Below are positions 4,920 to 63,675 of a stretch of DNA of 64,000 bases, one piece after another. The position numbers and the translations under genes are program-made. The DNA is taken from IMG/VR virus record IMGVR_UViG_3300012096_000007, positions 1-64,000 of that record. One strand, given 5' to 3'. The notes beneath the pieces are model-generated. The model had not been told where the DNA came from. It made no database searches and saw only the letters and a list, made by a program, of their open reading frames with translations. How positions within the stretch are numbered: the stretch's first letter is position 1; the number at the start of each line of letters is the position of its first letter. The DNA comes from a virus.

Positions 4920-4930
4920 CTCTATCCTCA

Positions 4931-27563: not shown

Positions 27564-28166
27564 ATGTCAAATACAAACGCAAATGATGCAAGTGCACTTT
27601 ACCCGCTGTTTTTCAAAAAATGGCAACCGGCTGGCATGGCCAAGCTGTTAGGCCCCAAACCTACAGCTGATCAGCTGGCCAAGGTGCACGCGTTGGGGCC
27701 ACGCCATGGCAAACAATGCTTTATCATTGCCATGTCACTGCGTGACTGTGGCGTGACCCCCGCGCAAATGGTGCTGATCACTGGTACCAAGCACCTCAAC
27801 AAAATGGGTGACTTGACCACTGACGCCTACTTGCGTGAGGTGCTGATGCCGCAAGTTGACAGCATGAAATGCTACAAGCGTGTAATCACCCCCAAAGGTG
27901 AGCAGCGCATTGAGCGGTTTGTTAAGGCACAAGCCGCTGCGGTGGCAGCGGGTGAGGCTGAAGTGGTCAAGGCACCCAAGGTGAAGGCGGCAGCAAAAAA
28001 GCGCACCAGCGCACCGCGCAAGCCCAAGGCAACGGTTGCTGAGCCGCAGCCGCACGTGACACCGGTACCGGCCAATGAAATGCCTAACACTGACAAGGTG
28101 GTTAGCATTGAAATTGACCACCATGACAATGACGGCACAACGCCGTTGCCCGTCAATCAGCTGTAA
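27564..28166 (+). CDS. unknown protein with Lys/Ala-rich C-terminus
   Basis: 200 residues. The N-terminal half has a compact helical domain (LAKVHALGPRHGKQCFIIAM, then SLRDCGVTPAQMVLITG); the pattern GxRxGxxxxxAxAxRxxGxT occurs in some rhizobial phage proteins. Residues 120-160 are rich in Lys, Ala and Pro and look disordered and nucleic-acid-binding. Codon use is more GC-rich than neighbours. Ribosome binding site is weak (gaagggtc). Function unknown. Confidence 0.78.
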   Translation: MSNTNANDASALYPLFFKKWQPAGMAKLLGPKPTADQLAKVHALGPRHGKQCFIIAMSLRDCGVTPAQMVLITGTKHLNKMGDLTTDAYLREVLMPQVDSMKCYKRVITPKGEQRIERFVKAQAAAVAAGEAEVVKAPKVKAAAKKRTSAPRKPKATVAEPQPHVTPVPANEMPNTDKVVSIEIDHHDNDGTTPLPVNQL

Positions 28167-28174
28167 CTTCACAA

Positions 28175-28198
28175 TGGCCGGGCGCAAATGCCCGGCCA
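28175..28198 (+). promoter_or_regulatory. strong hairpin before GPH-motif gene 8
   Basis: TGGCCGGGC, six-base loop, GCCCGGCCA: a perfect 9-bp GC stem between 27564..28166 and the next gene. No long T-run follows (aaactttt), so it could be a weak terminator, an RNA stability element or a separator of cistrons. It lies 20 nt before the ATG at 28218. Confidence 0.55.
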
Positions 28199-28217
28199 AA
28201 CTTTTGAGGTTACGGTC

Positions 28218-28532
28218 ATGAATGATGAACAATGGCAATATTGGCAAGGCCTATGGTTTAGGGCTTGGCAACTCATGCCACGGCATAGCGCAACCATGCT
28301 GTGCAAGCTGCTAGGTTACAGCGTGGCCAAGCCACCTAAGCTGATCAATAGGTTTAATGGTAAAGCCTATTATGCCAGCAATGGCGCCAATAGCCGCATA
28401 TACAGCAATTACAGGCGTGGCAGTAAGCCACGCTTGCCGGGCCAGCAACGTTTACTAAAAATGCTGGCTGGGCCTCACGGTGAAACAGTTGCTAAGGCAA
28501 TTGCCTTGCAACGCGGGTTTGAATTCAAGTAA
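28218..28532 (+). CDS. GPH-motif family protein (member 8)
   Basis: 104 residues from the ATG at 28218; GAGGTTACGG is the ribosome binding site. N-terminal EQWQYWQGLWFRAWQLMPRH, central lysine/arginine-rich part, closing motif RLLKMLAGPHGETVAKAIAL, which is close to the family consensus. It resembles member 14 (47344..47736), including an R(F/Y)-rich middle and RLL(K/R)xLAGPHG. More GC-rich than the members at 25 kb. Confidence 0.78.
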   Translation: MNDEQWQYWQGLWFRAWQLMPRHSATMLCKLLGYSVAKPPKLINRFNGKAYYASNGANSRIYSNYRRGSKPRLPGQQRLLKMLAGPHGETVAKAIALQRGFEFK

Positions 28533-28543
28533 GGGCAGGCAAA

Positions 28544-28615
28544 ATGCAACATGACGCACACGTTACCAGCTGGCGCAACTGGCTGGCTGATTTAGTCAAA
28601 GCGTTGCGTAAATGA
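28544..28615 (+). CDS. possible microprotein
   Basis: 23 residues: MQHDAHVTSWRNWLADLVKA plus LRK. AGGGCAGG lies upstream of the ATG, 11 nt after the preceding stop, and a terminator follows directly. An amphipathic helix is likely. Too short to be sure it is translated. Confidence 0.4.
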   Translation: MQHDAHVTSWRNWLADLVKALRK

Positions 28616-28621
28616 AATTGA

Positions 28622-28655
28622 ACGGGCAGGGTCAAACCTTGCCCGTTTTATTTTG
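28622..28655 (+). terminator. rho-independent terminator
   Basis: ACGGGCAGGG, short loop, CCTTGCCCGT forms a 10-bp stem with one G-T pair, followed by TTTTATTTT. Ends the short transcription unit 27564-28615. Confidence 0.8.
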
Positions 28656-28929
28656 CCCAGCTGAATTCGTCTTCTACGCTGTCTTATTCTTGCTTCCATT
28701 TAAACTGTGAAGAAGACTATTGGTGCAAAGAAGACTATACCTAGGAAGAAACTCATCTGGACGAAATGGCTCATCTGTCGAAGAAGTATAATTTTAAGAC
28801 GACGACTTAATTCGCACTCATATTAATCCTCCTCCTCATCTGTCGAAGAAATCATTGTTATCTTCGTCGTATCCTTCGTTTCCCATGTCGGTAACCTATT
28901 CCATTGGTCTTATTAAGTCCCTATATGGC
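28656..28929. other. noncoding stretch with GAAGA-rich direct repeats
   Basis: No supported gene. A 16-bp sequence CTCATCTGTCGAAGAA occurs at 28770-28785 and again at 28835-28850. GAAGAAGACTAT/AAGAAGACTAT is repeated near 28711 and 28729. On the minus strand GAGGAGGAGG stands 8 nt before an ATG of a four-codon frame near 28820. The stretch may hold downstream debris of the endonuclease gene that follows. Confidence 0.4.
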
Positions 28930-33893: not shown

Positions 33894-34295
33894 ATGACTG
33901 AAAAAATCACAATAGTCATTACTACTTGGCAAGTACCATTCGATCAAATGGTCAAAGGTGTATTTGAGTTTGACGATGTTCAAGCCGCCACATCTTTCAT
34001 CAATGACGCCAGCCACAAGTGGTGGGATGAAAACCATGGTGAAAGAGGCAATGCGCCTTACAAACCCATCACTGAGCTTGGCTATGACATGGCCCACTAC
34101 GAATTGTGGGGCGGTGAAACCGGCTTCCATGCCATGCTGGATGACGCAAGTGCTTGGCGTTTGCATAATGCCCACTACAAGCTCGAATTCGATGATAAAG
34201 GAATCAAACGCCCCGGCTACTTACGCGTGGCATATGGTGAAAACGTAGATACCGAATTAGCTGAATTATACGCCTTTTATTCCCCCAAACACTGA
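33894..34295 (+). CDS. unknown protein
   Basis: 133 residues. Begins with a beta-rich stretch (EKITIVITTWQVPFDQMVKG) and has HKWWDENHGERGN and DMAHYELWGGETGFHAMLDD. Acidic overall. The start is fixed by AGGAGGAG at 7-14 nt upstream. Likely cytoplasmic. I do not recognise the family. Confidence 0.78.
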   Translation: MTEKITIVITTWQVPFDQMVKGVFEFDDVQAATSFINDASHKWWDENHGERGNAPYKPITELGYDMAHYELWGGETGFHAMLDDASAWRLHNAHYKLEFDDKGIKRPGYLRVAYGENVDTELAELYAFYSPKH

Positions 34296-34358
34296 ATGTT
34301 TCGGCAAAGGCCCTACGGGGCCTTTAGCGAAGCAATCAGCTTCAAACAGGAGGAGAAT
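34294..34358 (+). promoter_or_regulatory. intercistronic leader
   Basis: Outer stem GAATGTTTCG/CGAAGCAATC (starts in the TGA stop), inner AAAGGCCC-TACG-GGGCCTTT, alternative hairpin GAAGC-aatca-GCTTC, then AAACAGGAGGAGAAT and ATG. Confidence 0.75.
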
Positions 34359-34844
34359 ATGCCAACTATCATCTTTGATGACAATTTCAATAACAAAGAA
34401 AAAGTCATCCTCTCAAAAACATTCAAGGCAAACTGTGAACACCTTGATATCACTAATCATGATTGCACAGTCATTGTGCATCGCCAGCATCTTGGCAAAA
34501 AGGGCCATCAAGGATCAATGTCACGTTTGGCATCTGATCATTTCTTGGTGCTGCTCAATTCAAATGGTTTCAACCTGTTTGAAGGCATCTCGGTGCTGGG
34601 GCATGAAGCGGTTCACATCGCCCAATACCTGCGCGGTGATTTGGGTGATGATCACAATGGATGCAATTGGCGTGGCCAACATTTTCCACGGTTCATCTGT
34701 GAAGCTAGTGCCGCTTATCAGCACCTTCCATGGGAAAAAGAAGCTTTAGGGCTACAACACCAACTGCATAAGCATGCCATCGATACATTACCTCGTACTG
34801 AATTAGGGCACGTGCTTGATGCTTCACGTTTCGCATTTGAATGA
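34359..34844 (+). CDS. putative zinc metallopeptidase
   Basis: 161 residues. HExxH motif GHEAVHIAQYLRGDLG (His-Glu at about 84-85, third His +4), then a Glu downstream in FICEASAAYQHLPWEKEA that could be the third zinc ligand (gluzincin-type order HExxH...E). The N-terminal part has an alpha/beta look (TVIVHRQHLGKKGHQG). No signal peptide, so a cytoplasmic target or processing of phage proteins is likely. Leader-controlled. Confidence 0.72.
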   Translation: MPTIIFDDNFNNKEKVILSKTFKANCEHLDITNHDCTVIVHRQHLGKKGHQGSMSRLASDHFLVLLNSNGFNLFEGISVLGHEAVHIAQYLRGDLGDDHNGCNWRGQHFPRFICEASAAYQHLPWEKEALGLQHQLHKHAIDTLPRTELGHVLDASRFAFE

Positions 34845-37795: not shown

Positions 37796-38293
37796 ATGCG
37801 TACAGATCTAATGTTACGGGGCGCTGCGTTGCTTGAGGCAGATGCAGCCAATCCAAACGGCGTCAAATTCAATCTCGCCACATGGGCTGCCGATTCAAGA
37901 GTTGACTTTGAAATAATCTTCTTTGACGGTGAACGCGAATACAAATTCCCAGAAAATGAACCAGTCGCCGTCAACTGTGGAACACAAGCCTGCGCTTTTG
38001 GCTTGTTTGCCATCAGTGGAGCCTTCAAAAAGGAAGGCCTCGACTACGTACTTCTGGATGGCTTAGTAACTCCCAAGCTGACACTTGCTGCCGGCACGAT
38101 ATTCTTAGGCTGGGAAGCCGTGTACCAGCTCTTTGATATCACTGAGCAAGAAAGTATGCATCTTTTCAGTTCCGTAGCTTACAATAAACAAAAAGGAGCT
38201 ACTGCTGAGCTGGAAGTAGCTAAACGTATGCGAGAGATGGTCGTTGACCATCTCAACAAAAATGCTGGCGTGATCAATCAAAGCGATGAATGA
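37796..38293 (+). CDS. phage protein of the Trp-Cys motif type, unknown
   Basis: 165 residues. FNLATWAADSRVDFEIIFFD, then VNCGTQACAFGLFAISGAFK. The TW...C-GT-x-AC-x-x-G pattern is frequent in tailed-phage proteins of unknown role and recurs in 38467..38988. The C-terminal half is helical (ITEQESMHLFSSVAYNKQKG). ATG at 37796 or 37790 both fit the leader. Confidence 0.75.
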   Translation: MRTDLMLRGAALLEADAANPNGVKFNLATWAADSRVDFEIIFFDGEREYKFPENEPVAVNCGTQACAFGLFAISGAFKKEGLDYVLLDGLVTPKLTLAAGTIFLGWEAVYQLFDITEQESMHLFSSVAYNKQKGATAELEVAKRMREMVVDHLNKNAGVINQSDE

Positions 38294-38402
38294 TCAACCT
38301 CTCCAGCCTTGGTCCAGAATACAAAAGCTGAATTTTTTCAGCTGGGTTGACAAATGGTTGGCCAGAAGTGCGCGAGCACTTTACTATGATTGGTCCAGCT
38401 AA
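38286..38402 (+). CDS. aromatic microprotein
   Basis: 38 residues: MNDQPLQPWSRIQKLNFFSW, then VDKWLARSARALYYDWSS. Begins 8 nt before the previous stop and ends in a TAA that opens the next leader. Trp/Tyr-rich amphipathic helix. Confidence 0.55.
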   Translation: MNDQPLQPWSRIQKLNFFSWVDKWLARSARALYYDWSS

Positions 38403-38466
38403 GTGCTTCTGTCCTGCTGCATACGTGCAGCAGTGAGAAGCATTCAGCTTCAACAGGAGGAGTTAA
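38401..38466 (+). promoter_or_regulatory. intercistronic leader
   Basis: Outer AGTGCTTCT/AGAAGCATT, inner TGCTGCA-TACG-TGCAGCA, alternative GAAGC-attca-GCTTC, AACAGGAGGAGTTAA, ATG. Duplicate of 36833. Confidence 0.8.
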
Positions 38467-38988
38467 ATGGCAGTAACTAAAAAACGCACAGCAACTAAGA
38501 AACAAGTCATCCTTCCTATGGTGCCATCACAACTAATCGACATTGCCATCAAGGATATGCGTAAAGCTTTAGCAAAAAAATGGGTTATCAACATGAGTAC
38601 TTGGTATAACCCAAAAACTAAGGTCGAATGCAAAGTTGACGATGATACCATTATTGAAAGATATACCGTTTGCAGTGGCTGTGCCGCTGGAAGCGTAATG
38701 GCTTTCTCATTAGCCAATGCCAATCAATTAAAAGTAAAGTTGGAACCGGACAACTTTAAGAAAAATAGCCAACAACTTTTGGCAATTGACCACCTACGAC
38801 AAGGAGAAGCTGCAGAGGCAGCTGTTCAGCTGGGCTTAATTGATGGCCGCTACTCTGATTATGAAAAATACTTAGCTCTTAGTTCTCTAAACAATAAGAG
38901 CATCCCTTATTTCGACCAACAAAAGCCTGAGCCATTCTTCAAAGCCATGAAAGCTTTTTCAGCCAAACTAAAAAAGGCCGGTTATTGA
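38467..38988 (+). CDS. phage protein of the Trp-Cys motif type, unknown
   Basis: 173 residues, distant relative of 37796..38293: WVINMSTWYNPKTKVECKVD and YTVCSGCAAGSVMAFSLANA take the place of its TW and CGTQAC segments. Basic N-terminus (AVTKKRTATKKQ). C-terminal half helical. Function unknown. Confidence 0.75.
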   Translation: MAVTKKRTATKKQVILPMVPSQLIDIAIKDMRKALAKKWVINMSTWYNPKTKVECKVDDDTIIERYTVCSGCAAGSVMAFSLANANQLKVKLEPDNFKKNSQQLLAIDHLRQGEAAEAAVQLGLIDGRYSDYEKYLALSSLNNKSIPYFDQQKPEPFFKAMKAFSAKLKKAGY

Positions 38989-41798: not shown

Positions 41799-42992
41799 AT
41801 GAAAATCAAAGATCGTGAGGCGCATGATTCCATCATCCACGCCCGCACCAATCTATTGGTCAGCAATGGCTTCTTTGGCTTTCTGGCCATGCAATTGCGG
41901 TTGATTGAAGACTACAACATGCCTACGGCTGCGGTAGATGGTATATCACTGTTCTACAATCCTGATTTCGTCAATCAACTAGACGACAGGCAATGTGAAT
42001 TCCTGATATGCCATGAAGTCATGCACTGTTGCCTGAAACACTTCTCAAGACGGCAAGGACGACAAATCAAGCCGTGGAATGCAGCTTGTGACTTTGTAAT
42101 CAATTTGGACTTGAAGGATTCAGGCTTCACCTTGATCCACGATGTCATGATCAGCGGCAAAAACTTCCAATGCTGTATTGATGAAAAATACAGAGGTATG
42201 ACCTCTGAAGAGATCTATGATTCGTTCCCCAAAGTTGAAATTAACTTCTATATATCTGGGGATGGATCAGAATGGGACATTGGTGGTGTCATTGATGCAC
42301 CAAATGGCCAAACAGGTGAAGAGCAAGCCAAACACACTTGGGATAAAGCCGTACGATCAGCCATAGCTGTTATGAAAGCTAGTGGTATTGGCAGCGTTCC
42401 CGGCATCCTACGTCACCTGATTGGTGAATTGAATAGACCAAAAGTTTCATGGAAAGATCTGACATGGAACTTCATTGATCAATCCATGTCCAAGGAACCA
42501 TCTTGGGCACGGATCAGCCGACGCAGCGTAGCCATGGGTACCCTATTACCCGGCGTCATATCTGACCGGCTCAATCATCTAGTGTTTGCCGTGGATGATT
42601 CTGGCAGCATCAACGATAAAATGTTCAAAGAAATGCTCAGTGAAGTAGCTGGCTCTTTGGATCAAGGTACTGCTGATCAATTGACTGTCATCTATGCTGA
42701 TACCCGTGCCCATGATATTTTCCATTACGTGATGGGCGACATTGTGAAGCCAGAACCTTTAAAAGGTGGAGGAGGTGGTACTGCTTTCAGTGATACCTTC
42801 AAATACATCAGTGAAAATATCCCCGATGCCAGCTGCATCATCTACCTCACCGACCTTGATGTTTATGATTTTGGTGACGACCCCGGTATTCCAACCTTAT
42901 GGGCGGTATACACCCATGAAAGCCAATTTCCACAGCTGGCCGAAAAAGTACCGTTTGGGGTTCCCATCCATGTCTCAACAAGCATAAGCTAA
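41799..42992 (+). CDS. DUF2201-like metallopeptidase/VWA protein
   Basis: 397 residues. N-terminal metallopeptidase-like domain with CHEVMHCCLKHFSRR (HExxH at 72-76) and a downstream AACDFVINLDL segment; C-terminal VWA-like domain with MIDAS FAVDDSGSI at about 263-271 and IIYLTDLDV near the end. This two-domain order is the DUF2201 type, which works with MoxR ATPases. Sits in a separate translational unit under a long leader. It may process or hold a client delivered by the ATPase. Confidence 0.88.
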   Translation: MKIKDREAHDSIIHARTNLLVSNGFFGFLAMQLRLIEDYNMPTAAVDGISLFYNPDFVNQLDDRQCEFLICHEVMHCCLKHFSRRQGRQIKPWNAACDFVINLDLKDSGFTLIHDVMISGKNFQCCIDEKYRGMTSEEIYDSFPKVEINFYISGDGSEWDIGGVIDAPNGQTGEEQAKHTWDKAVRSAIAVMKASGIGSVPGILRHLIGELNRPKVSWKDLTWNFIDQSMSKEPSWARISRRSVAMGTLLPGVISDRLNHLVFAVDDSGSINDKMFKEMLSEVAGSLDQGTADQLTVIYADTRAHDIFHYVMGDIVKPEPLKGGGGGTAFSDTFKYISENIPDASCIIYLTDLDVYDFGDDPGIPTLWAVYTHESQFPQLAEKVPFGVPIHVSTSIS

Positions 42993-43132
42993 GTGTTCAC
43001 GTCCTGCAGAGAGGAGCCCCGGTATTAGTAGGCCACTCACAACTCCGGTGAGGGTGATCCGTCAGTGATGACGGATTGTGCCGGGGCTCCACTCTGTAGT
43101 GGTGAGCATTTGTGCTCAAACAGGAGGAGAAT
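42991..43132 (+). promoter_or_regulatory. intercistronic leader, long multi-branched form
   Basis: Outer AAGTGTTCAC/GTGAGCATTT (starts in TAA), GTCC/GTG loop kept, then a stem TGCAGAG/CTCTGTA and inner GGAGCCCCGG/CCGGGGCTCC enclosing two more hairpins. Alternative GAGC-atttgt-GCTC, AAACAGGAGGAGAAT, ATG. Confidence 0.75.
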
Positions 43133-43336
43133 ATGAAAACACCACAGGCCAAGTTTGAATGGCCTAAAATACCTCATTCACATCTCAAACTTATCTATTT
43201 CTCCATCACATCCTTCTGTTGTGCCATCACAGCTTTTGCTGACGCAATAGGAGTAACTATATTTTTCGGATTAATGACCGCGTTTGTCTTTATCAGCGTG
43301 ATTGTTAATGATGATGATGACAAGGAGGAAGCATGA
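43133..43336 (+). CDS. small membrane protein
   Basis: 67 residues from ATG 43133. Two hydrophobic helices (LIYFSITSFCCAITAFADAI and FFGLMTAFVFISVIV) and an acidic end (NDDDDKEEA). ATGA overlap with the next gene. Function unknown. Confidence 0.68.
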   Translation: MKTPQAKFEWPKIPHSHLKLIYFSITSFCCAITAFADAIGVTIFFGLMTAFVFISVIVNDDDDKEEA

Positions 43337-43710
43337 ACTTCCAATTTGTACCGATGGATGTCTATCCATTGATTGATCGAAGCAAAATGCCACAGATCGA
43401 TGACAACAAATATCCCGACTTGTTTGTATTTCTTGGTGAACAGGGAATGACTTTCAGCGCAGGAATCATTGATCCCACCCTGCTCAAACTTCACCAAGAA
43501 ATAGATATTCAAAAAGCAATGAATATCCCTGACCACAGCCTTAGCAAACCATTGCTCATCACTCAAAATGAGTTTGTGTTGGATGGTGATCACAGAGCCT
43601 ACCGGCATTTCGTCAACAAAACCAAAGCACCTTTCATCCGCATCGAGGCTGAGTTTTATGTGGCCTATACCGCCATCATGAAATTTCCCGGAACTTTCGA
43701 GGTGATATAA
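43333..43710 (+). CDS. ParB/Srx-like domain protein
   Basis: 125 residues. SKPLLITQNEFVLDGDHRAY (DGDHR at 84-88) is the ParB/sulfiredoxin-fold core: strand, then D-G-x-H-R loop that in this family binds nucleotide. The N-terminal part gives the preceding strands. Overlaps 43710 start by one base. Likely a small nucleotide-binding regulator or nuclease; its role here is unknown. Confidence 0.75.
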   Translation: MNFQFVPMDVYPLIDRSKMPQIDDNKYPDLFVFLGEQGMTFSAGIIDPTLLKLHQEIDIQKAMNIPDHSLSKPLLITQNEFVLDGDHRAYRHFVNKTKAPFIRIEAEFYVAYTAIMKFPGTFEVI

Positions 43711-48166: not shown

Positions 48167-48189
48167 TTCGGCGGCTAACTGAAACTAGG

Positions 48190-48218
48190 GCCGGGGGCTT
48201 CATTGCCTCCGGCTTTTT
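48190..48218 (+). terminator. rho-independent terminator
   Basis: GCCGGGGGC, loop TTCATT, GCCTCCGGC, then TTTTT. Ends the transcript of 47828..48166. Confidence 0.8.
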
Positions 48219-48417: not shown

Positions 48418-48636
48418 ATGGTAGATGATATCGACAAGGCAAGCTTTGTCAAAAAGGGCGAAACCCTTGAAAGTATCAGAACCATGGTGGGCCTGAACAC
48501 CAAAGCTATGGCCGGTGAGTTAGGCCTCAGACACTATCACTATCTAAAACTTGAGGCAGGAGAATGGAAAACTCCATTTTATCATCTCAAGGCAGCCAAG
48601 AACGTGGTCAGGTGGATATATAGCCTGAACAAATAA
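48418..48636 (+). CDS. helix-turn-helix regulator
   Basis: 72 residues: KGETLESIRTMVGLNTKAMA then ELGLRHYHYLKLEAGEWK is an Xre/HTH-type arrangement, with TKAMAGELGL as helix 2 and RHYHYLKLE as recognition helix. Weakly spaced from the membrane protein (2 nt). Followed by the structured noncoding region. Confidence 0.72.
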   Translation: MVDDIDKASFVKKGETLESIRTMVGLNTKAMAGELGLRHYHYLKLEAGEWKTPFYHLKAAKNVVRWIYSLNK

Positions 48637-48649
48637 CCCGATTTGACAA

Positions 48650-49145
48650 CAATAATGAAGAGGGGTACGAAATGTGAAGCCGCCCAGTTAGAAGCTGGAC
48701 GGCTTCGTCAGATAACTTGCGTTACCAATTATCTGAGATTCGCTGCTCGCGGCAGCTAGGGTCTAAATAACCCAACCTCCGCCCCCGAGTCCAGACCCCT
48801 TCGGTAACAAGTTAGCTGGCCATAGCCAGCCCTCGGTTTGGGCCGACTCCATGGAAAACAAGACCGTGGGTGAATCTGTGGAAGGGCATCCATTACTAAT
48901 AAAAGTGCAATAGCAATGTTGCATGGGAGAGGGCTCTCCATCGCTGGAACCCTCAAGCAGGATACTTTTCTAACATGCCTGACTTCTTGGAAGTATCTTG
49001 CTGCGTTGAGCCTTCGAGGCTAAGTAAGAAGTAAAAGCTGACCGCACAACCCCAGCTTACCAAATCAAATGGTTTTCTAGGCATGTCCGTGCTTCCTGAT
49101 GGAGACACAGCTTTGTCGTTGCTAGGCAAAGCTGTATCTGATTGT
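48650..49145 (+). ncRNA. large structured noncoding RNA candidate
   Basis: About 460-490 nt without a gene and with eleven hairpins in series: 48676-48706, 48708-48736 (TCAGATAA/TTATCTGA), 48742-48756, 48759-48798, 48815-48830 (GCTGGC/GCCAGC), 48905-48924, 48926-48939, 48956-49002 (AGCAGGATACTT/AAGTATCTTGCT), 49009-49021, 49035-49058 and 49107-49135 (ACAGCTTTG/CAAAGCTGT). I could not find group I or II intron core sequences, nor tmRNA or RNase P features. Resembles the class of large ornate phage RNAs (GOLLD, ROOL) in style only. Confidence 0.72.
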
Positions 49146-49168: not shown

Positions 49169-49390
49169 ATGAAACAGTATAAAGACAAACAGAGAAATTC
49201 AATAGGACATGGAAATATCTGTAGAAAATGTAGAAGTAAGATGATTCGTTATCAACATAGTAAAAATTGGATTCCACAATCTAACTCTTATTATTTTAAA
49301 TATTGGGATAAATGTCGGAAATGTAAATATCTTCAACATTATGAAATTGCTAAAGTCTATGTTGGTGATGTTGAAATATGGGATGAGTAG
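49169..49390 (+). CDS. zinc-ribbon protein, unknown
   Basis: 73 residues. CRKCRSKMIRY and CRKCKYLQHYE are two CxxC knuckles. Basic and AT-rich, unlike neighbours, so it may belong to the structured RNA or to a mobile gene. The ATG follows AGGAGTTG. End overlaps the next frame. Function unknown. Confidence 0.68.
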   Translation: MKQYKDKQRNSIGHGNICRKCRSKMIRYQHSKNWIPQSNSYYFKYWDKCRKCKYLQHYEIAKVYVGDVEIWDE

Positions 49391-49406
49391 AAGGAAGCTT
49401 GTCAAG

Positions 49407-49784
49407 ATGACACATGAAGAATTCACTCTGTATTGGAAACCAGCAAGAGACACATTTGGTAAGGGGAAAAATGATGAAAACTTCAAGAGACATCCATCCT
49501 ACTTCTTAGCTAAAGCCATAGGAGTGGATTATCCGTGTCCAGGACACTGGGATCAGCTTGAATTGACAGAAGACCTCAAAAACAAACTTCTGGCTTTAGT
49601 TGGTCCTCACCGAGAGACCATGCTTAGAATCTATCAAATCAAAAGGGAGTACCATGAGCAACAAAAGCTTGCCATCAAGCAGAAGCGTCGAGCCGATTTA
49701 CGTCAAATTAAGCAAGATGATCGTGACGCAAAGGGTGAACTTGGGGATGACCCAAGTGCAATTGGCAGCCAAGACTGGGATTAG
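49407..49784 (+). CDS. GPH-motif family protein (member 15)
   Basis: 125 residues from ATG 49407 (49383 possible). THEEFTLYWKPARDTFGKGK, then a YFLAKAIGVDYPCPGHW segment and the motif KNKLLALVGPHRETMLRIYQ. A charged extension of about 45 residues follows, encoded in the part that overlaps the next gene by 131 nt. Function unknown. Confidence 0.72.
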   Translation: MTHEEFTLYWKPARDTFGKGKNDENFKRHPSYFLAKAIGVDYPCPGHWDQLELTEDLKNKLLALVGPHRETMLRIYQIKREYHEQQKLAIKQKRRADLRQIKQDDRDAKGELGDDPSAIGSQDWD

Positions 49785-50509: not shown

Positions 50510-50753
50510 TCGGTTCTTTTTGAAGGGGGCTGATGCTCCCTATATCACCGCCTTGAAATTTGTTTCCATTCACCAGTATGAGGTTTTGCTTTATGTCAGG
50601 GATAACCCTGACACTTCCTATAAAAAAGGAGCCAAGGAATTGGGTATCCCTATTGGCACATTCAAAACACGTTTGCACCGTGCTCGTCAGAAAATTAAGA
50701 ACTGGCGTGAGGCACAGCTCCATAGTCCAGCTGGTCAAGACAACGGACTTTGA
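50499..50753 (+). CDS. sigma-70 region 4-like protein
   Basis: 84 residues from ATG 50499. TALKFVSIHQYEVLLYVRDN, then SYKKGAKELGIPIGTFKTRL and HRARQKI form the helix-turn-helix of sigma-factor region 4 (IPIGTFKTRLHRAR as recognition helix). No region 2 is present. Its last 13 codons lie in a tRNA gene. Could compete with host sigma factors or act as a co-regulator. Confidence 0.75.
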   Translation: MISDRFFLKGADAPYITALKFVSIHQYEVLLYVRDNPDTSYKKGAKELGIPIGTFKTRLHRARQKIKNWREAQLHSPAGQDNGL

Positions 50754-50791
50754 CTCCGTAGACATCTGTTCGAATCAGATTGGAGCTGCCA
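50716..50791 (+). tRNA. tRNA-Gln(TTG)
   Basis: 76 nt with encoded CCA. Acceptor AGCTCCA/TGGAGCT perfect; anticodon stem ACGGA/TCCGT perfect; loop CTTTGAC, anticodon TTG (codon CAA); T-arm ATCTG-TTCGAAT-CAGAT perfect; D-stem GTC/GAC. The 5' half overlaps the end of the sigma-like gene and the HNH gene starts 3 nt after its end. Confidence 0.9.
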
Positions 50792-51741: not shown

Positions 51742-53172
51742 ATGACTGTCAATTTATCAGCCATACAAGAAAATCTAATTGTCTTACTGACATATTCTGA
51801 TGAACATTGTCACACAATTAGAAACTTAATTGAGCCAGAATGGTGGGGTGGCCCATTTAGGGAAATTTCACGTCGTGTTTATGATTATTGTGATCGTTAC
51901 AAGAAAGCCCCCAAGGATCACATTGCTGATCTGATGGCTGACAAGCTTGAAAACAAAAAGAACCCTCGTGAAGCCAGCCTTTACGAGGATATCTTAATGA
52001 GTATTCACGGACAATCTGAAAATATTAATGCTCCCTACGTCATGGGGCAGTTAGAAAATTTCATCAAGCGTCAATCCTTGCGCACCATAGCCATTGATCT
52101 GGCCAAGGCATTGCAGCGTGACACAGACGATTCACTTGAAGAAGCTGAAAAGCTGATTAATGCATCACGGCATCAAGTGGCGTCTGTGTTTGATCCCGGC
52201 CTGCGGCTATCAAATCGAGATCGGGTATTGGATTTCTTAGACCAAGGTAACCACTGTTTTCCCACAGGCATACCAGAGTTGGACAAACGAGGGTTTGGCC
52301 CCACCCGTAAAGAACTGTGGTTGTACATTGCAGCTGCAAAGCGTGGTAAGACATGGATGCTTATCCAACTGGCTAAAATGGCCATCTTGCACAGGTTACG
52401 TGTCGTGCATATCACGCTTGAGATGTCCGAGGATAGGTCAGCGCAGCGTTACATGCAAGCTTTGTTCGCCATGTCCAAGCGTAATGAGAAACAGCTGGTA
52501 ACCAAGTTTGAACGCGACCAGCTAGGTCGGTTAGTGGGGTTAGATGAGATCGAGATAAGACCCAAACTGTACATGAATGATCCTAATATCAGAAAAAGAC
52601 TGGAAAAGAAAATTGACAGATTTGGTCCTCGTCTACTCGATAATGTTATTGTCAAGCAGTTTCCAACTGGCAGCCTCAGCGTTCGTCAATTGGAAGCCTA
52701 TTTGGATAATCTGGAGTCTAATGAACGTTTTATTCCTGATTTACTTATTATTGATTATCCTGATCTTATGAATGTGGATAAAAACAACTATCGTCTGTCC
52801 ATAGATGAAATATACAAGGATATCCGTGGTCTGTTGGTATCCCGCAACATGGCGGGTGCCGTGGTCAGTCAAGGCAATAGGCTATCTGAAAAAGCCAAAA
52901 ATGTGGGTTCTGACCATGTGGCAGAGGCATGGAGCAAGATTGCCCATGCCGATTGCATCATTACGTATAATCAAACCGTAGCTGAACATAAAATGGGTTT
53001 GGCACGCCTCCACGTAGCAGGCGGTCGAAATGACGAAGATAAAATTACCTTGATTATCTCACAAAATTACGCAATGGGAACATTCGTTGTTGATTCTATA
53101 TTCATGAACGGTGCCAACTATTGGTCAAACTTGCCAACTGGAGGCCGTGACGGTGAAGAGGATCAGACTTAA
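51742..53172 (+). CDS. DnaB-like replicative helicase
   Basis: 476 residues. RecA-type core: Walker A-like AAAKRGKTW at about 198-206 (Arg-Gly-Lys-Thr), VVHITLEMSEDRSAQRY (DnaB motif 1a), Walker B-like DLLIIDYPDLMNV and a final motif around HVAGGRNDEDKITLIISQNY. The N-terminal domain is compact and helical. Forms the ring helicase of the phage fork; partners are the primase (56915) and clamp (62653). Confidence 0.9.
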   Translation: MTVNLSAIQENLIVLLTYSDEHCHTIRNLIEPEWWGGPFREISRRVYDYCDRYKKAPKDHIADLMADKLENKKNPREASLYEDILMSIHGQSENINAPYVMGQLENFIKRQSLRTIAIDLAKALQRDTDDSLEEAEKLINASRHQVASVFDPGLRLSNRDRVLDFLDQGNHCFPTGIPELDKRGFGPTRKELWLYIAAAKRGKTWMLIQLAKMAILHRLRVVHITLEMSEDRSAQRYMQALFAMSKRNEKQLVTKFERDQLGRLVGLDEIEIRPKLYMNDPNIRKRLEKKIDRFGPRLLDNVIVKQFPTGSLSVRQLEAYLDNLESNERFIPDLLIIDYPDLMNVDKNNYRLSIDEIYKDIRGLLVSRNMAGAVVSQGNRLSEKAKNVGSDHVAEAWSKIAHADCIITYNQTVAEHKMGLARLHVAGGRNDEDKITLIISQNYAMGTFVVDSIFMNGANYWSNLPTGGRDGEEDQT

Positions 53173-53335
53173 ACTATCTACACCTACACCAGAATACTTT
53201 AGACTACGCTATTGGTGGCTGCATGAGTTGCGCACTTTACGTGCCAAACGCCGTATAGCTGGTTTGAATACTTCAAGAGAAATTAAAACTGCACAACGTG
53301 CATTAGCTAAAATTAGGAAAGAGGAACATGTCTAG
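53153..53335 (+). CDS. small basic protein, GTG start
   Basis: 60 residues from GTG 53153 with GGAGGCCGTGAC upstream, overlapping the helicase end. KRIRLKLSTPTPEYFRLRYW, then HELRTLRAKRRIAGLNTSRE; strongly basic and helical. Possibly binds DNA with the helicase. Confidence 0.6.
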   Translation: MKRIRLKLSTPTPEYFRLRYWWLHELRTLRAKRRIAGLNTSREIKTAQRALAKIRKEEHV

Positions 53336-53582
53336 AATGCTAAATGAAGTTGACGCTGTTAAACTGAGGGAAGCTGATGAAGATGTACCTGCTCAGAAAC
53401 TGGCATTGGCTCTTCTGTTAATTGATGCTGATGGTCGTCTTGAACAATTTCAAGGTACACCATGGACTGATCTTCCTCCTATGTTCAGATGGATGGCGCA
53501 TAAATTATTAGCCAATGACGAATTACGCGTCCGTATCGTCAAAGTTCTAAGGATGAATGACAAATGGCCAATGACGGGCTGA
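53328..53582 (+). CDS. small protein, unknown
   Basis: 84 residues: SRMLNEVDAVKLREADEDVP, LALALLLIDADGRLEQFQGT. GGAACATG region with GAGG upstream. Overlaps both neighbours slightly. Helical; function unknown. Confidence 0.7.
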   Translation: MSRMLNEVDAVKLREADEDVPAQKLALALLLIDADGRLEQFQGTPWTDLPPMFRWMAHKLLANDELRVRIVKVLRMNDKWPMTG

Positions 53583-53836
53583 AACCTAAAAAACTGACAG
53601 CTCGCGATAAAGCTGAACTTTTGGTTCAAATGACCAAAGAAGCCAAGCAAATCACTCGGAAGCTCCATGCTTCCGCTTGCATTGTAGTTTGCATGTTTGA
53701 AGAAGAGGGGAAAATTCTGGTGCAGGATGCAGGCCTGTTTCCGATGCCCCCGACTGATTTCTATGAATTGTTGCAAAACGCTCACAAGAACGGTCAAATG
53801 GGAGATACGGCCAAGAAAATTCTCAGACCCAACTGA
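53564..53836 (+). CDS. small protein, unknown
   Basis: 90 residues: NDGLKPKKLTARDKAELLVQ, then ACIVVCMFEEEGKILVQDAG. Alpha/beta appearance with a KLTARDKAELL helix. Overlaps 53328..53582 by 19 nt. Function unknown. Confidence 0.7.
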   Translation: MANDGLKPKKLTARDKAELLVQMTKEAKQITRKLHASACIVVCMFEEEGKILVQDAGLFPMPPTDFYELLQNAHKNGQMGDTAKKILRPN

Positions 53837-53847
53837 AGGAGAGTGCC

Positions 53848-54084
53848 ATGATTAAGCTAGTAGCTTTGTTGTTCTTAGTAACGAATGGAGTTCCAGCCAG
53901 TGAACCCTATCACACTATCTCAAATAACAAAGAGTTCATGTCCAAGGATGATTGCCTTGAGTACCTCAAAACCGATCAAGGTAAAGCAGCTACCCAATAT
54001 ATGGAAAACTGGGCAGCAAACCAAAATGGCAAGATAGCTGTAAAATTTGACTGTGTGAATGTCAGCAAAGGCGAGAGTTTGTAA
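53848..54084 (+). CDS. small secreted protein
   Basis: 78 residues with signal peptide MIKLVALLFLVTNGVPASEP (cleavage after PAS). Mature part has one cysteine pair (DDCLEYLK and KFDCVNV), probably disulfide-bonded in the periplasm. AAGGAGAGTGCC upstream. Its TAA is directly before the TTG start of the next gene. Confidence 0.75.
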   Translation: MIKLVALLFLVTNGVPASEPYHTISNNKEFMSKDDCLEYLKTDQGKAATQYMENWAANQNGKIAVKFDCVNVSKGESL

Positions 54085-55626
54085 TTGATCAATAAGAAGG
54101 TCGTAAAACAGTTCCTTGAACGTCAACTTGATAACCATGATTGGCTCAAGGGTTGCAAACGATCGATTTTAATAGAAGACTTAACGGCAGACATCAAGTA
54201 TTTGCCGGGTTTTGAAAATTTATGGACCCACCAACTAGTCTGCCTCCTGCTTGTCATTGAATTGAAGCGATTTATGCTTCACATAGACATGGGCGGCGGC
54301 AAGACACTGATAGCCTTGTATTCTATCCTCAGGCGCAAGCTGATGAATGAGCACCCCCTAGCCATTGTCTTTGTGCCATATGTGTCCGCCGTGGATACAT
54401 GGATTGAAGAGTGTAAGAAGCACACCCCAACTTTGAAATTAGTGCCTCTGATAGGTACCACAACACAAAACCTTCGCGTTCTTGAAGAACGTGAGGGAGA
54501 TCTTTTTGTCATAGCTTATCAAAGTGCCGTAGCCATGCTCTCAGAAGAGCACCCTAAGAAAAAAGGCTGGACCATTGACCCAAACAACACCCGAAAAGTC
54601 TTTGAAGGTTTCAATACCTTTGTGGCGGATGAAATACATAAGTGTTCAAATCTCAACTCTCTTACCTACCGAATGTGTCGTACTATCAGTGCTCAATGCG
54701 AATACGGTATGGGGTTGTCAGGTACGCCCTTTGGCAAGGATGTGGGGGACATCTGGGCACAGTTCCACTTGATTGATTTTGGTAAAACACTAGGGGAAAC
54801 TAAAGGGCTGTTTCAGGAAGCTTTTTTCAAGAAGCAGCTAGGTCACTTTTCAGGCTTCCCCGAATACGTGTTTGAGAAGGCAAAAATGCCACTTCTTAAC
54901 AAGATCATCAAACATAGTTCCATCCACTATGCGGCCAGTGAAATGCATGATCTGCCTGCCAAACGGTACATCAAGCGTAAGGTACCACTTCCTACCGCCA
55001 TGGCAGGCTACATCAGCAAGGCTGCTGAAGAGTTCATCATTGCCTTGAAAGCAGGTGGTACCCGACAAGCAGAAGCCAGCTACATGCAACTAAGGCAATT
55101 GGCGTCAGGCTTTATGACCGTGGACGGTCAAAATAACACCAAAATCAAAGTGGCATTTGACACCAACCCCAAACTTGACTTGCTTGAGGAGTACATTGAT
55201 GCAATGGCGTATGCGTCCAAAATGGTGGTTTTTCATCATTTCGTGCACACTAATCACCTTATCAGTGAGCGTCTTAAAACCCGGAAAATCAGACACGCAA
55301 GAATCTGGTCAGGTCAAAAAGACGTACTCGGGGAACTTAGACGGTTTAGGGATGATGACAACTGCCGGGTCTTGGTTCTTAACGACCAATCTGGTTCCAC
55401 CTCCCTCAACCTTCAACACGCGAATTATATGTTCTTTTTTGAAGAACCAGATTCACCGATCAACCGTCAACAAGGCGAAAAGAGGATCTATCGTGCGGGG
55501 CAAACCAAACCAGTCTGGATCATAGATCCATTCATGGAGGGTACTGTTGATGAACGTATCTTCTATGCAAACATGCAAGGCAAAAGATTGCTTGATCAAC
55601 TTCTAAAGGGCGTACAAAAGCTATGA
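54085..55626 (+). CDS. SNF2-type DNA helicase
   Basis: 513 residues, TTG start at 54085 directly after the previous stop. Superfamily 2 motifs: I DMGGGKT at 68-74, II ADEIHK, III MGLSGTPFG, and in the second domain SGSTSLNLQHANYMFFFEEP followed by QQGEKRIYRAGQT (motif VI with arginine fingers). Translocates on double-stranded DNA to remodel protein-DNA complexes; in phages such enzymes act in replication start or recombination. Confidence 0.9.
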   Translation: MINKKVVKQFLERQLDNHDWLKGCKRSILIEDLTADIKYLPGFENLWTHQLVCLLLVIELKRFMLHIDMGGGKTLIALYSILRRKLMNEHPLAIVFVPYVSAVDTWIEECKKHTPTLKLVPLIGTTTQNLRVLEEREGDLFVIAYQSAVAMLSEEHPKKKGWTIDPNNTRKVFEGFNTFVADEIHKCSNLNSLTYRMCRTISAQCEYGMGLSGTPFGKDVGDIWAQFHLIDFGKTLGETKGLFQEAFFKKQLGHFSGFPEYVFEKAKMPLLNKIIKHSSIHYAASEMHDLPAKRYIKRKVPLPTAMAGYISKAAEEFIIALKAGGTRQAEASYMQLRQLASGFMTVDGQNNTKIKVAFDTNPKLDLLEEYIDAMAYASKMVVFHHFVHTNHLISERLKTRKIRHARIWSGQKDVLGELRRFRDDDNCRVLVLNDQSGSTSLNLQHANYMFFFEEPDSPINRQQGEKRIYRAGQTKPVWIIDPFMEGTVDERIFYANMQGKRLLDQLLKGVQKL

Positions 55627-56714
55627 AGAATATGTATGAAATGCAACATACTGTCATACAAGATGCGAACTTATGGCAGCAAATCAGTCAGCAGTTTATT
55701 GCTGACAATGAAGGGGATTTCTTCTTTAGCAAATATGAAGTAGCATTGAGTACTCAAACAAACTCAAAACGAAGTGTGATACTCAAGCTTAAATCCTATC
55801 TCACTGAAGCAAGAATAACAATGCCTCTTGATAGCCGTACCGTTGTTATCACTGGGCATTGGAAAGCAATGCCAATATTGATTTGGACTTATATTGAAGA
55901 TTACGGAGATGTTTGTAAATATAAGATAGATATCACAGGTCACCCTGACTATCTTGATGGGTTACTTTATCAAATTGGAAAGGATTTTTCCCGTGATCAC
56001 TTGCCAGTCATCAAATGGTGGTTCATTGGCAAGCATGGTGAAGATACCCGTGAATTTTATCTACCTCCTACAGGTGACAAAATACTGAAGGAGTACTATC
56101 CCGGTTTGGAAGACCCTGAGCAGTATCTTGAAGATTACATGCATTCCAATGAATCTGTACTCTTGATTACAGGACCGCCGGGAACTGGCAAAACCACGCT
56201 GCTGCGGCATCTTATTACTAAATATAAGCTGAGCGCCCATATCATTTACGATGAGCGTTTAATGGAGCGTGATAGTCCATTTCAGGCTTTTTTGTTTGGG
56301 GAAAATGATGGCGTGCCGACCATGAATGGAGAAGCTGATCATATGGGTGGCGACATTATGATTGTTGAGGATGCTGATACAGTCTTGACCACCCGTGAAC
56401 GGGATGGGAACAGACTGATGTCTAGGTTCCTCAATATTTCAGATGGCCTTATCAAGATACCAAACAAGAAAATGGTATTCACCACCAATATCTTGGATTT
56501 TCAAAATGTGGATGATGCCTTGATGCGCCCCGGCAGGTGCTTTGGTATCCTGCATACACGGTTGCTTAATTATACCGAAGCACAAGCCGCTGCTCAAGCG
56601 GGTGGAATGTCACCCCCTGCCAAAAAACCTGACCCTAGCTATAGCTTGGCTGAATTGTTCAATCAGGGTAAAACAAGCGAAGTGAGGAAAGTTGGTTTTG
56701 GTGTGAGGCATTAA
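55623..56714 (+). CDS. AAA+ ATPase of the replication region
   Basis: 363 residues. Walker A GPPGTGKTTLL at 184-194, Walker B-like GGDIMIVEDADTVL, sensor 1 MVFTTNILDF and an arginine in DALMRPGRCF (typical second-region-of-homology segment). The N-terminal 170 residues are specific to this protein. Overlaps the helicase stop by ATGA. It may load the helicase or clamp, as no separate clamp-loader gene is seen here. Confidence 0.86.
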   Translation: MKNMYEMQHTVIQDANLWQQISQQFIADNEGDFFFSKYEVALSTQTNSKRSVILKLKSYLTEARITMPLDSRTVVITGHWKAMPILIWTYIEDYGDVCKYKIDITGHPDYLDGLLYQIGKDFSRDHLPVIKWWFIGKHGEDTREFYLPPTGDKILKEYYPGLEDPEQYLEDYMHSNESVLLITGPPGTGKTTLLRHLITKYKLSAHIIYDERLMERDSPFQAFLFGENDGVPTMNGEADHMGGDIMIVEDADTVLTTRERDGNRLMSRFLNISDGLIKIPNKKMVFTTNILDFQNVDDALMRPGRCFGILHTRLLNYTEAQAAAQAGGMSPPAKKPDPSYSLAELFNQGKTSEVRKVGFGVRH

Positions 56715-56715
56715 A

Positions 56716-56940
56716 ATGGATCGTTGTAAAAGAGGGCATCCTTTCATTGCCAGTAATGTGCAATGGATTAAGGTTAAAAAGGGAAAATATCGTGCGTGTA
56801 AAATTTGTAAAGCTGCACGAATACGGTTCCGCTATAAAAACGATCCTGAATTTAGAGCTAGGCTAATCAACACAGCATTAAAATTCTACTATAAGAAAAA
56901 AGCGGAGAAACAAAATGGAGTGGCAAAGGTTTCTGGATGA
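56716..56940 (+). CDS. small HNH-like zinc protein
   Basis: 74 residues: DRCKRGHPFIASNVQWIKVK then YRACKICKAARIRFRYK with GH plus CxxC, as in small free-standing HNH-type proteins (CxxGHxx.....C..C...R). The helical end is basic. Inserted between ATPase and primase genes and overlapping the primase start. AT-rich, probably mobile. Confidence 0.72.
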   Translation: MDRCKRGHPFIASNVQWIKVKKGKYRACKICKAARIRFRYKNDPEFRARLINTALKFYYKKKAEKQNGVAKVSG

Positions 56941-57994
56941 AAATAACATTCACTATGTCACTCGCGGGCCTAACACCAAACGAGGTGAAGTCTCTATTCA
57001 GTGCCCAATGTGCGCCGATGAGGACCCCTCCGAGCACTTGGGCATTAACCTTCAAAGTGAAAAATGGGGCTGTCACCGAGATAGCAACCACCGTGGGAAA
57101 TCATCTCGTACCCTTGTCAAAGCCATCCTTGGCTGCTCAAACCCACAAGCTGGATTTATCGTCAAGCAATACAGCCATAGTGACCCTGATACGCTAGAAG
57201 CGGCATTGGCTGTTCTTGAAGCTGACAACAGAGGTGTCATTGAGCATGACGAGGATATAGTCAAGCAAACTAGACGTCAGCAAGACGGACCACAATTCAA
57301 GGATTTTAATCTCATTAAGTCACGTGGCATCACGCAACGTTTCTTTAAATACTTACAAAACCGTGGTTATGAAAATCCTCAAGATATCATTGATAGGTAT
57401 GATCTCCGTTGTGCTCTTACAGGCAAATACAAGGATAGGATCATCATGCCTATCAAACACAGTGAAGAGCTAATTGGCTGGACTAGCCGTGCCATAGGGA
57501 CGCCTAAAAATGCCCCTCGGTATCTTGCCAGTTCTGAGAATGTCAAAGCTTTTATATTCAATTATGATCAATTAAAATATGGGGGCCATCGACTAATTGT
57601 TACTGAAGGCCCATTTGATGCCATTAGAATAGATAGTCACAGGCAACTGAGCACTCTATTAGTTAGAGCCACATGCACTTTTGGAACCTCTGTAACAATC
57701 AGTCAAATAGCGTTACTTCGAACATTAAAGAAAAACTTTGATGAAACATGGATTTTGTTTGACCGAGGAGCAGATAGACCAGCTGTTGATTTAGCCGAAT
57801 GGCTTGGTGCCAAGGTAGCCCACTTACCTGATGGCTATGATGATCCGGGTGAATTAGAATCTGAAGATTTAGATTATCTAGCAACTAAAATATTTCAAGG
57901 TTGGTGGGGTGATGGTGGATTATCTAATCTTCTCCGAAGATACGGCCATCCCTCCATTAAAGGTATAGCCAAGCAAAAAACACACAAGTTCTAG
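56915..57994 (+). CDS. DNA primase with TOPRIM domain
   Basis: 359 residues. N-terminal zinc site C30-P-M-C33 and GCHRDSNHRG near 52-61. TOPRIM: RLIVTEGPFDAIRIDSHRQL (E-G-P-F-D-A) and later ETWILFDRGADRPAVDLAEW (Asp). Family like the phage P4/T7-type primase-helicase N-terminal half but without a helicase domain, so it works with the DnaB-like helicase. AGGCGGAGA-type ribosome binding site inside the previous gene. Confidence 0.9.
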   Translation: MEWQRFLDENNIHYVTRGPNTKRGEVSIQCPMCADEDPSEHLGINLQSEKWGCHRDSNHRGKSSRTLVKAILGCSNPQAGFIVKQYSHSDPDTLEAALAVLEADNRGVIEHDEDIVKQTRRQQDGPQFKDFNLIKSRGITQRFFKYLQNRGYENPQDIIDRYDLRCALTGKYKDRIIMPIKHSEELIGWTSRAIGTPKNAPRYLASSENVKAFIFNYDQLKYGGHRLIVTEGPFDAIRIDSHRQLSTLLVRATCTFGTSVTISQIALLRTLKKNFDETWILFDRGADRPAVDLAEWLGAKVAHLPDGYDDPGELESEDLDYLATKIFQGWWGDGGLSNLLRRYGHPSIKGIAKQKTHKF

Positions 57995-62355: not shown

Positions 62356-62656
62356 AAGACAGCAATTTGAATATGACAAGTGGAGATTACTAGTAAGTTT
62401 AAAGTTCCGCCCTAGAAATTGGAACTGTCTTGTCCATTCCAGTGGTGAAATTTTTCAATTAACAAATAACACTGAAAAAATGTTAATATGGATAGCCAAT
62501 AAAGAATGGGGTTTGTATTTTACAGTTGAAGGCAGAAAATACGGAAATCCTATCAACATTCATGGTCGTTTTGTACCATGGAGACGTGAAGTTCTGAAAC
62601 ATGGATTAAGAGCCTCAAAAAGCCCATGGATAAACAGAGTAGGCCCAAACAAATGA
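62285..62656 (+). CDS. basic protein overlapping methyltransferase
   Basis: 123 residues. It overlaps the end of the methyltransferase by 71 nt and its TGA overlaps the clamp start (ATGA), which supports it. Very basic: KNWYHATKIYSYLKRRKAER, RPRNWNCLVHSSGEIFQLTN. Ends in RASKSPWINRVGPNK. No domain recognised. Confidence 0.6.
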   Translation: MLGKAKNWYHATKIYSYLKRRKAERQQFEYDKWRLLVSLKFRPRNWNCLVHSSGEIFQLTNNTEKMLIWIANKEWGLYFTVEGRKYGNPINIHGRFVPWRREVLKHGLRASKSPWINRVGPNK

Positions 62657-63675
62657 ACAGAGCTGAGCTAGTCCAAACACTTGAACTTGTAAAATCTGCT
62701 TTAGCTCCCACCAACATGATTCCAATCTTTCAATGCTTCACTTTTGATGGAGGATTTGTATCAGCCTATAATGATACCATAGCCATTATAGGACCAGCAG
62801 AGATTGAGGAAACATTTGGTATTCATGGCAATACGTTGCTTGGGCTTCTATCCAATAGTAAAGCTGAGACAATAACATTGTCGCTTGAACGTGATACCGC
62901 CATTTTCAAGCTTGAAAAAACCATCAGTAAACTCCCATTTCAGCCTGAAGAGAATTTCTTGTTCAATGAACCTGAGGATAAATGGAATTTTAGTATTCCC
63001 TACACTGAAAGCTTCAATGAAGCCATCAGACTATGTTTGGAAACTGTTTCATCAGATACCACACAAGCTGCTTTGTTAGGCATTACCCTTGAAAATGATC
63101 TGATGTATTCCTGCAATGGTGACTGCCTGACCCGTATCAAATTGAAGAACAAAGTCAAAGTAAAAAGCAGAGTGCTGATGCCAACAGCATTTTGTGAAGC
63201 TGCTATCAAACTATGGTCAACATTGGAAATGACATCAGGTACCCTTTATTTCAATGATGAATGGATAATGGTTAATTTTGGAGAATGGACTGTGTATGGG
63301 CGTATACTTGAAATCAAGGAACCTATTGATTTTGTGAAATTGATCAAAGACACTATCAATCGTAAGGCTACACCTGATCTGCCTATACCTAATGGTTTTT
63401 CAGAAGCATTGTCTCGTGCCCGTGTATTGGCTGATCCTGAAAGCCAAAAGACCGTCGTCACGATTGTTAATAGCAAGATGACGTTGCTGACCGAAACCCA
63501 TATGGGTGAAATCAAAGATGATTTCAAACTAGAAGGGCATTCAGATGTGGTAGCCAATATTAACGCTAGTCATCTACAAAACGCCCTTAAATCTTGTAAG
63601 CAAATATCTTTCCATGAAAAATGTGTTATCCTTGAAGCCCCTGACGTATTTAAGCTCGTGAGCAATATGTCATGA
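62653..63675 (+). CDS. DNA polymerase sliding clamp (DnaN-like)
   Basis: 340 residues from ATG 62653 (ATGA overlap with the previous gene; ATG 62626 would be nine codons longer). N-terminal NRAELVQTLELVKSALAPTN and IFQCFTFDGGFVSAYNDTIA match the first clamp domain; RILEIKEPIDFVKLIKDTIN and VVTIVNSKMTLLTETHMGEI are later domains. Similar length to bacterial beta clamps (about 366). Encircles DNA behind the polymerase. Confidence 0.87.
   Translation: MNRAELVQTLELVKSALAPTNMIPIFQCFTFDGGFVSAYNDTIAIIGPAEIEETFGIHGNTLLGLLSNSKAETITLSLERDTAIFKLEKTISKLPFQPEENFLFNEPEDKWNFSIPYTESFNEAIRLCLETVSSDTTQAALLGITLENDLMYSCNGDCLTRIKLKNKVKVKSRVLMPTAFCEAAIKLWSTLEMTSGTLYFNDEWIMVNFGEWTVYGRILEIKEPIDFVKLIKDTINRKATPDLPIPNGFSEALSRARVLADPESQKTVVTIVNSKMTLLTETHMGEIKDDFKLEGHSDVVANINASHLQNALKSCKQISFHEKCVILEAPDVFKLVSNMS

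What the first reader, a model, noticed from the sequence alone, without database searches (positions are those of the whole stretch)
48650..49145. Large highly structured noncoding RNA of unknown class
Eleven strong hairpins follow one another in about 460 nt, with perfect stems of 8-12 bp and no coding potential. No core elements of introns, tmRNA or RNase P were found. Large ornate phage RNAs such as GOLLD or ROOL have this size and genomic setting, but I cannot align it to them by eye.
Basis: partly seen in the sequence, partly recalled or inferred. Interest (0 to 1): 0.85.

Follow-up and report, generated by a model that had tools for sequence, protein, structure and literature searches.

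The report
New large structured phage noncoding RNA
Two related uncultivated phages carry, at the same place in their genomes, a roughly 510-nucleotide RNA-coding stretch that matches no known RNA family and whose folded shape has been kept by evolution while much of its sequence changed, so it is probably a new kind of large phage RNA whose job is still unknown.

Summary
The locus is real, noncoding and, on the present evidence, a conserved structured RNA. Its conserved unit is 48627-49139 on the + strand, about 510 nt. It matches nothing in Rfam 15, even at E<=10. A homologue lies at the syntenic site in a second phage lineage (L004; L005 carries the same RNA).

The 5' half (48627-48898) is 93% identical between the lineages, against 69-87% in flanking genes. 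The 3' half has drifted to 59% identity but keeps its shape. Joint folding beats all 600 nulls (z 3-4.2), and six coding control segments do not exceed z 2.6. A loop-to-downstream pseudoknot is rebuilt with new letters (ACAUGCCU/AGGCAUGU versus ACAGUUU/AAACUGU). A GNRA-capped stem is almost completely rewritten.

Two cautions apply. The folding z-score alone is not special here, since five of 128 genome windows fold as well. Also, only two distinct sequences exist in everything I could search.

It resembles GOLLD/ROOL in size and phage setting but shows no homology to them. Most likely it is a trans-acting structured phage RNA with an invariant 5' core and a shape-conserved 3' scaffold. Function, expression and oligomerisation are untested.

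The parts
48627..49139 (+). Whole conserved RNA unit (about 510 nt)
   Evidence: Alignment with L004 4858-5376 begins sharply at 48627-48630 and ends with the last shared hairpin
48627..48898 (+). 5' half: 93% identical between the two phage lineages, 17 substitutions and 3 one-base indels
   Evidence: blastn; alignment
48630..48645 (+). Small first hairpin CAAAU-AACCCG-AUUUG; contains the stop codon of ORF 48418-48636. TTTGACA overlapping its 3' end could instead be part of a promoter (-35-like), which would put the RNA 5' end near 48675
   Evidence: promoter reading is inference
48676..48706 (+). Hairpin GAAGCCG/CGGCUUC with inner stem CCAGUU/AGCUGG
48708..48736 (+). Hairpin UCAGAUAA/UUAUCUGA
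48736..48877 (+). Invariant core multibranch domain closed by AGAUUC/GAAUCU; holds a block of about 59 nt identical in both lineages (starting about 48737)
48742..48756 (+). Hairpin GCUGC-UCGCG-GCAGC, loop with self-complementary CGCG
48759..48773 (+). Hairpin GGGU-CUAAAUA-ACCC
48789..48843 (+). Stem GUCCAGACC/GGUUUGGGC enclosing hairpin GCUGGC-CAUA-GCCAGC (48815-48830)
48849..48869 (+). Hairpin CCAUGG/CCGUGG
48899..49139 (+). 3' half: about 59% identical in aligned columns, structure conserved
48905..48924 (+). GNRA-capped hairpin GUGCAAUA-GCAA-UGUUGCAU; in L004 GGUCCCGCC-GUGA-GGCGUGAUC (5137-5158)
48929..48954 (+). Hairpin GAGGG..UCCA-UCGC-UGGA..CCCUC; in L004 GAAGG..UGCA-CCGC-UGCA..CCUUC
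48957..49004 (+). Long hairpin GCAG/CUGC plus GAUACUU/AAGUAUC; in L004 GGAA/UUCC plus UACUUCCA/UGGAAGUA
48973..48980 (+). Pseudoknot strand 1, ACAUGCCU, in the loop of the preceding hairpin (L004: ACAGUUU 5208-5214)
49079..49086 (+). Pseudoknot strand 2, AGGCAUGU (L004: AAACUGU 5315-5321)
49035..49058 (+). Hairpin AAGCUG/CAGCUU with shared loop letters GCACAA; in L004 AAGCCG/CGGCUU
49107..49135 (+). 3'-terminal hairpin ACAGCUUUGUC/GGCAAAGCUGU; in L004 UAGCUUUGUC/GGCAAAGCUA
48187..48216 (+). Terminator-like hairpin of the upstream gene; an equivalent lies directly before the RNA in L004 (4800-4813)

Best explanation
A new family of large structured phage noncoding RNA, about 510 nt, transcribed on the + strand from the early/replication gene region and acting in trans as a folded molecule. 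Shown: it is conserved at the same site in two phage lineages, is noncoding, has an almost invariant 5' core, and has a 3' half whose sequence drifts while helices and a pseudoknot persist. Inferred: that it is transcribed as one unit; that the invariant core carries the interaction or active surface, perhaps meeting a conserved host molecule such as the ribosome or RNA polymerase, or a copy of itself; that the 3' half is a rigid scaffold; and that the RNA folds with little or no dedicated protein, as GOLLD and ROOL do.
For: Syntenic homologue with a 93%-identical 5' half amid 69-87% flanks. Joint-fold score of the 3' half above all 600 null pairs, z 4.1-4.7 against -2.1 to 2.6 for six coding control segments. 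Pseudoknot rebuilt by compensatory change: 1, 12 and 11 of 300 nulls reach it. Four 6-bp-or-longer Watson-Crick helices shared, reached by 0, 6 and 12 of 300 nulls. In the 3' half the + strand scores far above the - strand (21761 against 15728). Flanking genes differ on both sides in the two phages (48418 and 49169 ORFs absent in L004), so the RNA behaves as its own module. No Rfam match.
Against: Only two distinct sequences; L004 and L005 share one RNA sequence. The pseudoknot reaches only p about 0.003-0.04. The number of double changes alone does not exceed nulls, because joint folding inflates it. The folding z-score is not unusual for this phage. No clear promoter or terminator for an independent transcript. 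No expression data. The 93% identity of the 5' half could partly reflect recent recombination.
Confidence: 0.62

Rival explanations
1. Cis-acting leader: a large 5' untranslated regulatory RNA controlling the genes downstream (zinc-ribbon, HTH, sigma-like ORFs).
For: It lies directly upstream of an operon on the same strand; the next start codon is about 30-80 nt away.
Against: The first downstream gene differs between the two phages (ORF 49169 is absent in L004). About 510 nt is large for a leader. No expression-platform-like terminator was found at the 3' end.
Confidence: 0.2
2. Two adjacent elements rather than one: a conserved 5' RNA or DNA element (about 270 nt, perhaps including a promoter) and a separate structured 3' RNA.
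For: Abrupt change of conservation near 48898; TTTGACA conserved near 48641; no covariation-supported pairing joins the halves.
Against: Both halves occur together and in the same order in both lineages. Single-sequence folds place long-range pairs between the halves, but not the same ones in both phages.
Confidence: 0.12
3. Degenerate self-splicing intron or other known ribozyme too divergent for Rfam.
For: Size and complexity fit; HNH genes occur in the phage.
Against: No Rfam match at E<=10. It sits between genes, downstream of a terminator in both phages, and interrupts no conserved gene.
Confidence: 0.03
4. DNA-level element, such as a replication origin rich in hairpins, or sequence homogenised by recombination rather than RNA constraint.
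For: Lies in the replication gene region; the 5' half alone could be a recombination tract.
Against: Strand asymmetry of the 3' half, G-U pairs turning into G-C pairs, GNRA loops kept with different letters (GCAA and GUGA), and a rebuilt pseudoknot all point to RNA.
Confidence: 0.05

Closest known systems
GOLLD RNA
   Same: Large, ornate, phage-borne, noncoding RNA with pseudoknots, one highly conserved and one variable part; function unknown (PMC12286853)
   Different: No match to the Rfam model; about 510 nt instead of often more than 800; here the 5' part, not the 3' part, is the conserved one; nearby tRNA not conserved
ROOL RNA
   Same: Similar size (a 659-nt example), phage setting, complex fold with pseudoknots, no known protein partner (PMC12286853)
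   Different: No match to the Rfam model; no conserved tRNA neighbourhood; oligomeric cage formation untested here
OLE RNA
   Same: About 600-nt, highly conserved, elaborate noncoding RNA (PMC12054373, PMC12286853)
   Different: OLE is found in Gram-positive bacterial genomes; no Rfam match here

Membership tests
GOLLD | Match to the GOLLD covariance model | tested here: not met
   cmscan of all Rfam families with gathering cut-offs and with E<=10
GOLLD | Conserved 3' region and less conserved 5' region | tested here: not met
   Here the 5' half is the conserved one
ROOL | Match to the ROOL covariance model | tested here: not met
GOLLD/ROOL | Frequent location near tRNA genes | tested here: inconclusive
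   tRNA-Gln at 50716 in the window, none in L004 or L005
GOLLD/ROOL | Homo-oligomeric nanocage | not testable with these tools
   Needs cryo-EM or mass photometry
Group I / group II intron | Catalytic core matching Rfam and interruption of a gene | tested here: not met
   No Rfam match; intergenic in both phages
tmRNA / RNase P RNA | ARAGORN or Rfam match | tested here: not met
Conserved structured RNA (any class) | Structure conserved despite sequence change, beyond nulls and coding controls | tested here: met

The most novel reading that the evidence does not exclude
A new class of self-sufficient phage RNA machine (an RNA-only assembly like the GOLLD/ROOL cages, or a ribozyme) with an unrelated fold, in which the invariant 5' core makes intermolecular or catalytic contacts.
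Probability: 0.15. Interest if true: 0.88.

Novelty: new variant of a known kind. Interest (0 to 1): 0.62.

Why it matters
Very few large ornate RNAs are known, and those from phages (GOLLD, ROOL) turned out to build RNA-only cages without a known purpose. An unrelated RNA of similar size in another phage group, with an invariant core and a compensating scaffold, gives an independent case for asking what such RNAs do. It also suggests that phage metagenomes hold RNA classes absent from Rfam.

Tried and rejected
Exact-pattern scans of viral contigs (two motifs) and of GTDB genome contigs (one motif), walks from the helicase, terminase and two neighbour genes, INPHARED, PLSDB, and 398 genomes of one phylum with a covariance model gave no third RNA sequence. 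Chance pattern hits (for example L040, E 0.03) lie in sequence otherwise unlike the RNA and were discarded.

RNAalifold on a MAFFT alignment underestimates the structure because MAFFT misaligns parts of the 3' half. A first helix-coincidence test counted helices out of register and was replaced. The raw count of double changes in joint folding is not evidence, since nulls reach it. The folding z-score alone was rejected as evidence.

Coding on the - strand (ORF 48756-48956) was rejected: no ORF of at least 60 aa there in L004. Literature searches found no description of this RNA.

Full report
What the locus is. The window is part of a 64.8-kb IMG/VR virus record with a phage terminase, portal, major head protein, helicases, primase and polymerase clamp. 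The reported stretch lies between small genes, 2.6 kb upstream of a DnaB-like helicase. Rfam 15 finds only two tRNAs in the window and nothing at this locus, even at E<=10; ARAGORN sees no tmRNA.

Is the observation sound? The + strand folds at -178.7 kcal/mol, z -5.05, and the - strand at z -3.67. However, 496-nt windows of this phage have a mean z of about -1.8, and five of 128 are lower than this one. The folding energy therefore does not single the locus out. About a dozen hairpins are present, but most have 4-7 bp stems and only about three reach 8 bp.

A homologue at the same place. Walking from the helicase gave two contigs that cover the site, L004 and L005, carrying the same RNA. Window 48627-48898 is 93% identical to L004 4858-5130, while flanking coding stretches are 69-87% identical. 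The match begins sharply at 48627. Differences include single-base indels, and L004 has no ORF of at least 60 aa on either strand across 4909-5454, which is all of the RNA except its first 50 nt, so it does not encode a conserved protein. The neighbouring ORFs 48418-48636 and 49169-49390 are missing in L004, while genes further out are shared. The RNA is therefore constant while its immediate neighbours change.

Structure kept while letters change. The 3' half is only about 59% identical. I wrote a joint align-and-fold program. Its score for the real pair exceeds all 600 control pairs made by three null procedures, z 3.0-4.2. Six coding segments from the same two phages, given the same treatment, lie between z -2.1 and 2.6, while the RNA half gives 4.1 and 4.7. 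The + strand scores far better than the - strand in this half (21761 against 15728); over the full length the two strands are close, because the 5' half is nearly identical.

Particular elements: a GNRA-capped stem with the loop changed from GCAA to GUGA and most stem letters replaced; GAGGG/CCCUC against GAAGG/CCUUC with UCCA/UGGA against UGCA/UGCA; AAGCUG/CAGCUU against AAGCCG/CGGCUU; and a 3'-terminal stem with one compensatory pair. Most telling is a pseudoknot between the loop at 48973-48980 and 49079-49086: ACAUGCCU/AGGCAUGU here, ACAGUUU/AAACUGU in L004. It is fully Watson-Crick in both, with at least four pairs changed on both sides. Nulls reach a comparable case in 1, 12 and 11 of 300 trials, so it is well supported but not beyond doubt. 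The raw number of double changes is not evidence, because the method creates them in nulls too.

The 5' half. A multibranch core closed by AGAUUC/GAAUCU (48736-48877) contains a block of about 59 nt identical in both lineages. Because it hardly varies, its pairing cannot be tested by covariation. Its constancy suggests a sequence-dependent role, but recent recombination between the phages could also contribute.

How it probably works (inference). A free-standing phage RNA with an invariant functional core and a shape-conserved scaffold, acting in trans on a host or phage partner or on copies of itself. The main rival is a large leader of the downstream operon. Upstream terminators in both phages fit a transcription unit starting at or before the RNA, but no convincing promoter was found.

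Comparison with the known. GOLLD and ROOL are phage RNAs of similar or larger size, with unknown function, that form RNA-only cages (PMC12286853). This RNA shares setting and complexity, but it fails the model matches and has the reverse polarity of conservation compared with GOLLD. It is not a member of either family; whether it works like them is open.

Limits. All permitted collections gave only two distinct sequences. The joint-folding program and its nulls are my own and simplified. There is no expression evidence.

Noticed in passing
L020:2001-4466 (terminase gene of the homologous phage record IMGVR_UViG_3300027903_000007): The large terminase gene carries an in-frame insertion of about 265 aa that begins with CMAGDTQVLMGNG and ends with IDGTENFIANGLISHN before Thr, the look of an intein; the window's terminase lacks it.
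   Followed up: partly
window 27322-28809, 34266-34761, 38234-38729, 42698-43689: Several other 496-nt stretches of this phage fold about as stably relative to shuffles as the reported RNA (z -4.6 to -5.9); not checked for coding or conservation.
   Followed up: no
window 50716-50791: A tRNA-Gln (TTG) gene overlaps predicted ORFs and is absent from the homologous phage L004.
   Followed up: partly
window 49341-49784 and L004 5455-5969: A small conserved protein of unknown family (MTHEEFTLYW / MTDDEFTQYW, with GPHRETMLRIYQIKR / GPHRETMLKIYQIKR) follows the RNA; L004 has two copies in tandem.
   Followed up: no
window 51742-57991 and 62626-63672: Replication genes (DnaB-like helicase, second helicase, primase, clamp) resemble the order in Edwardsiella phage vB_EpM_ZHS, while the terminase is closest to phages of the cyanobacteria Microcystis and Pseudanabaena: probably a mosaic genome.
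   Followed up: partly
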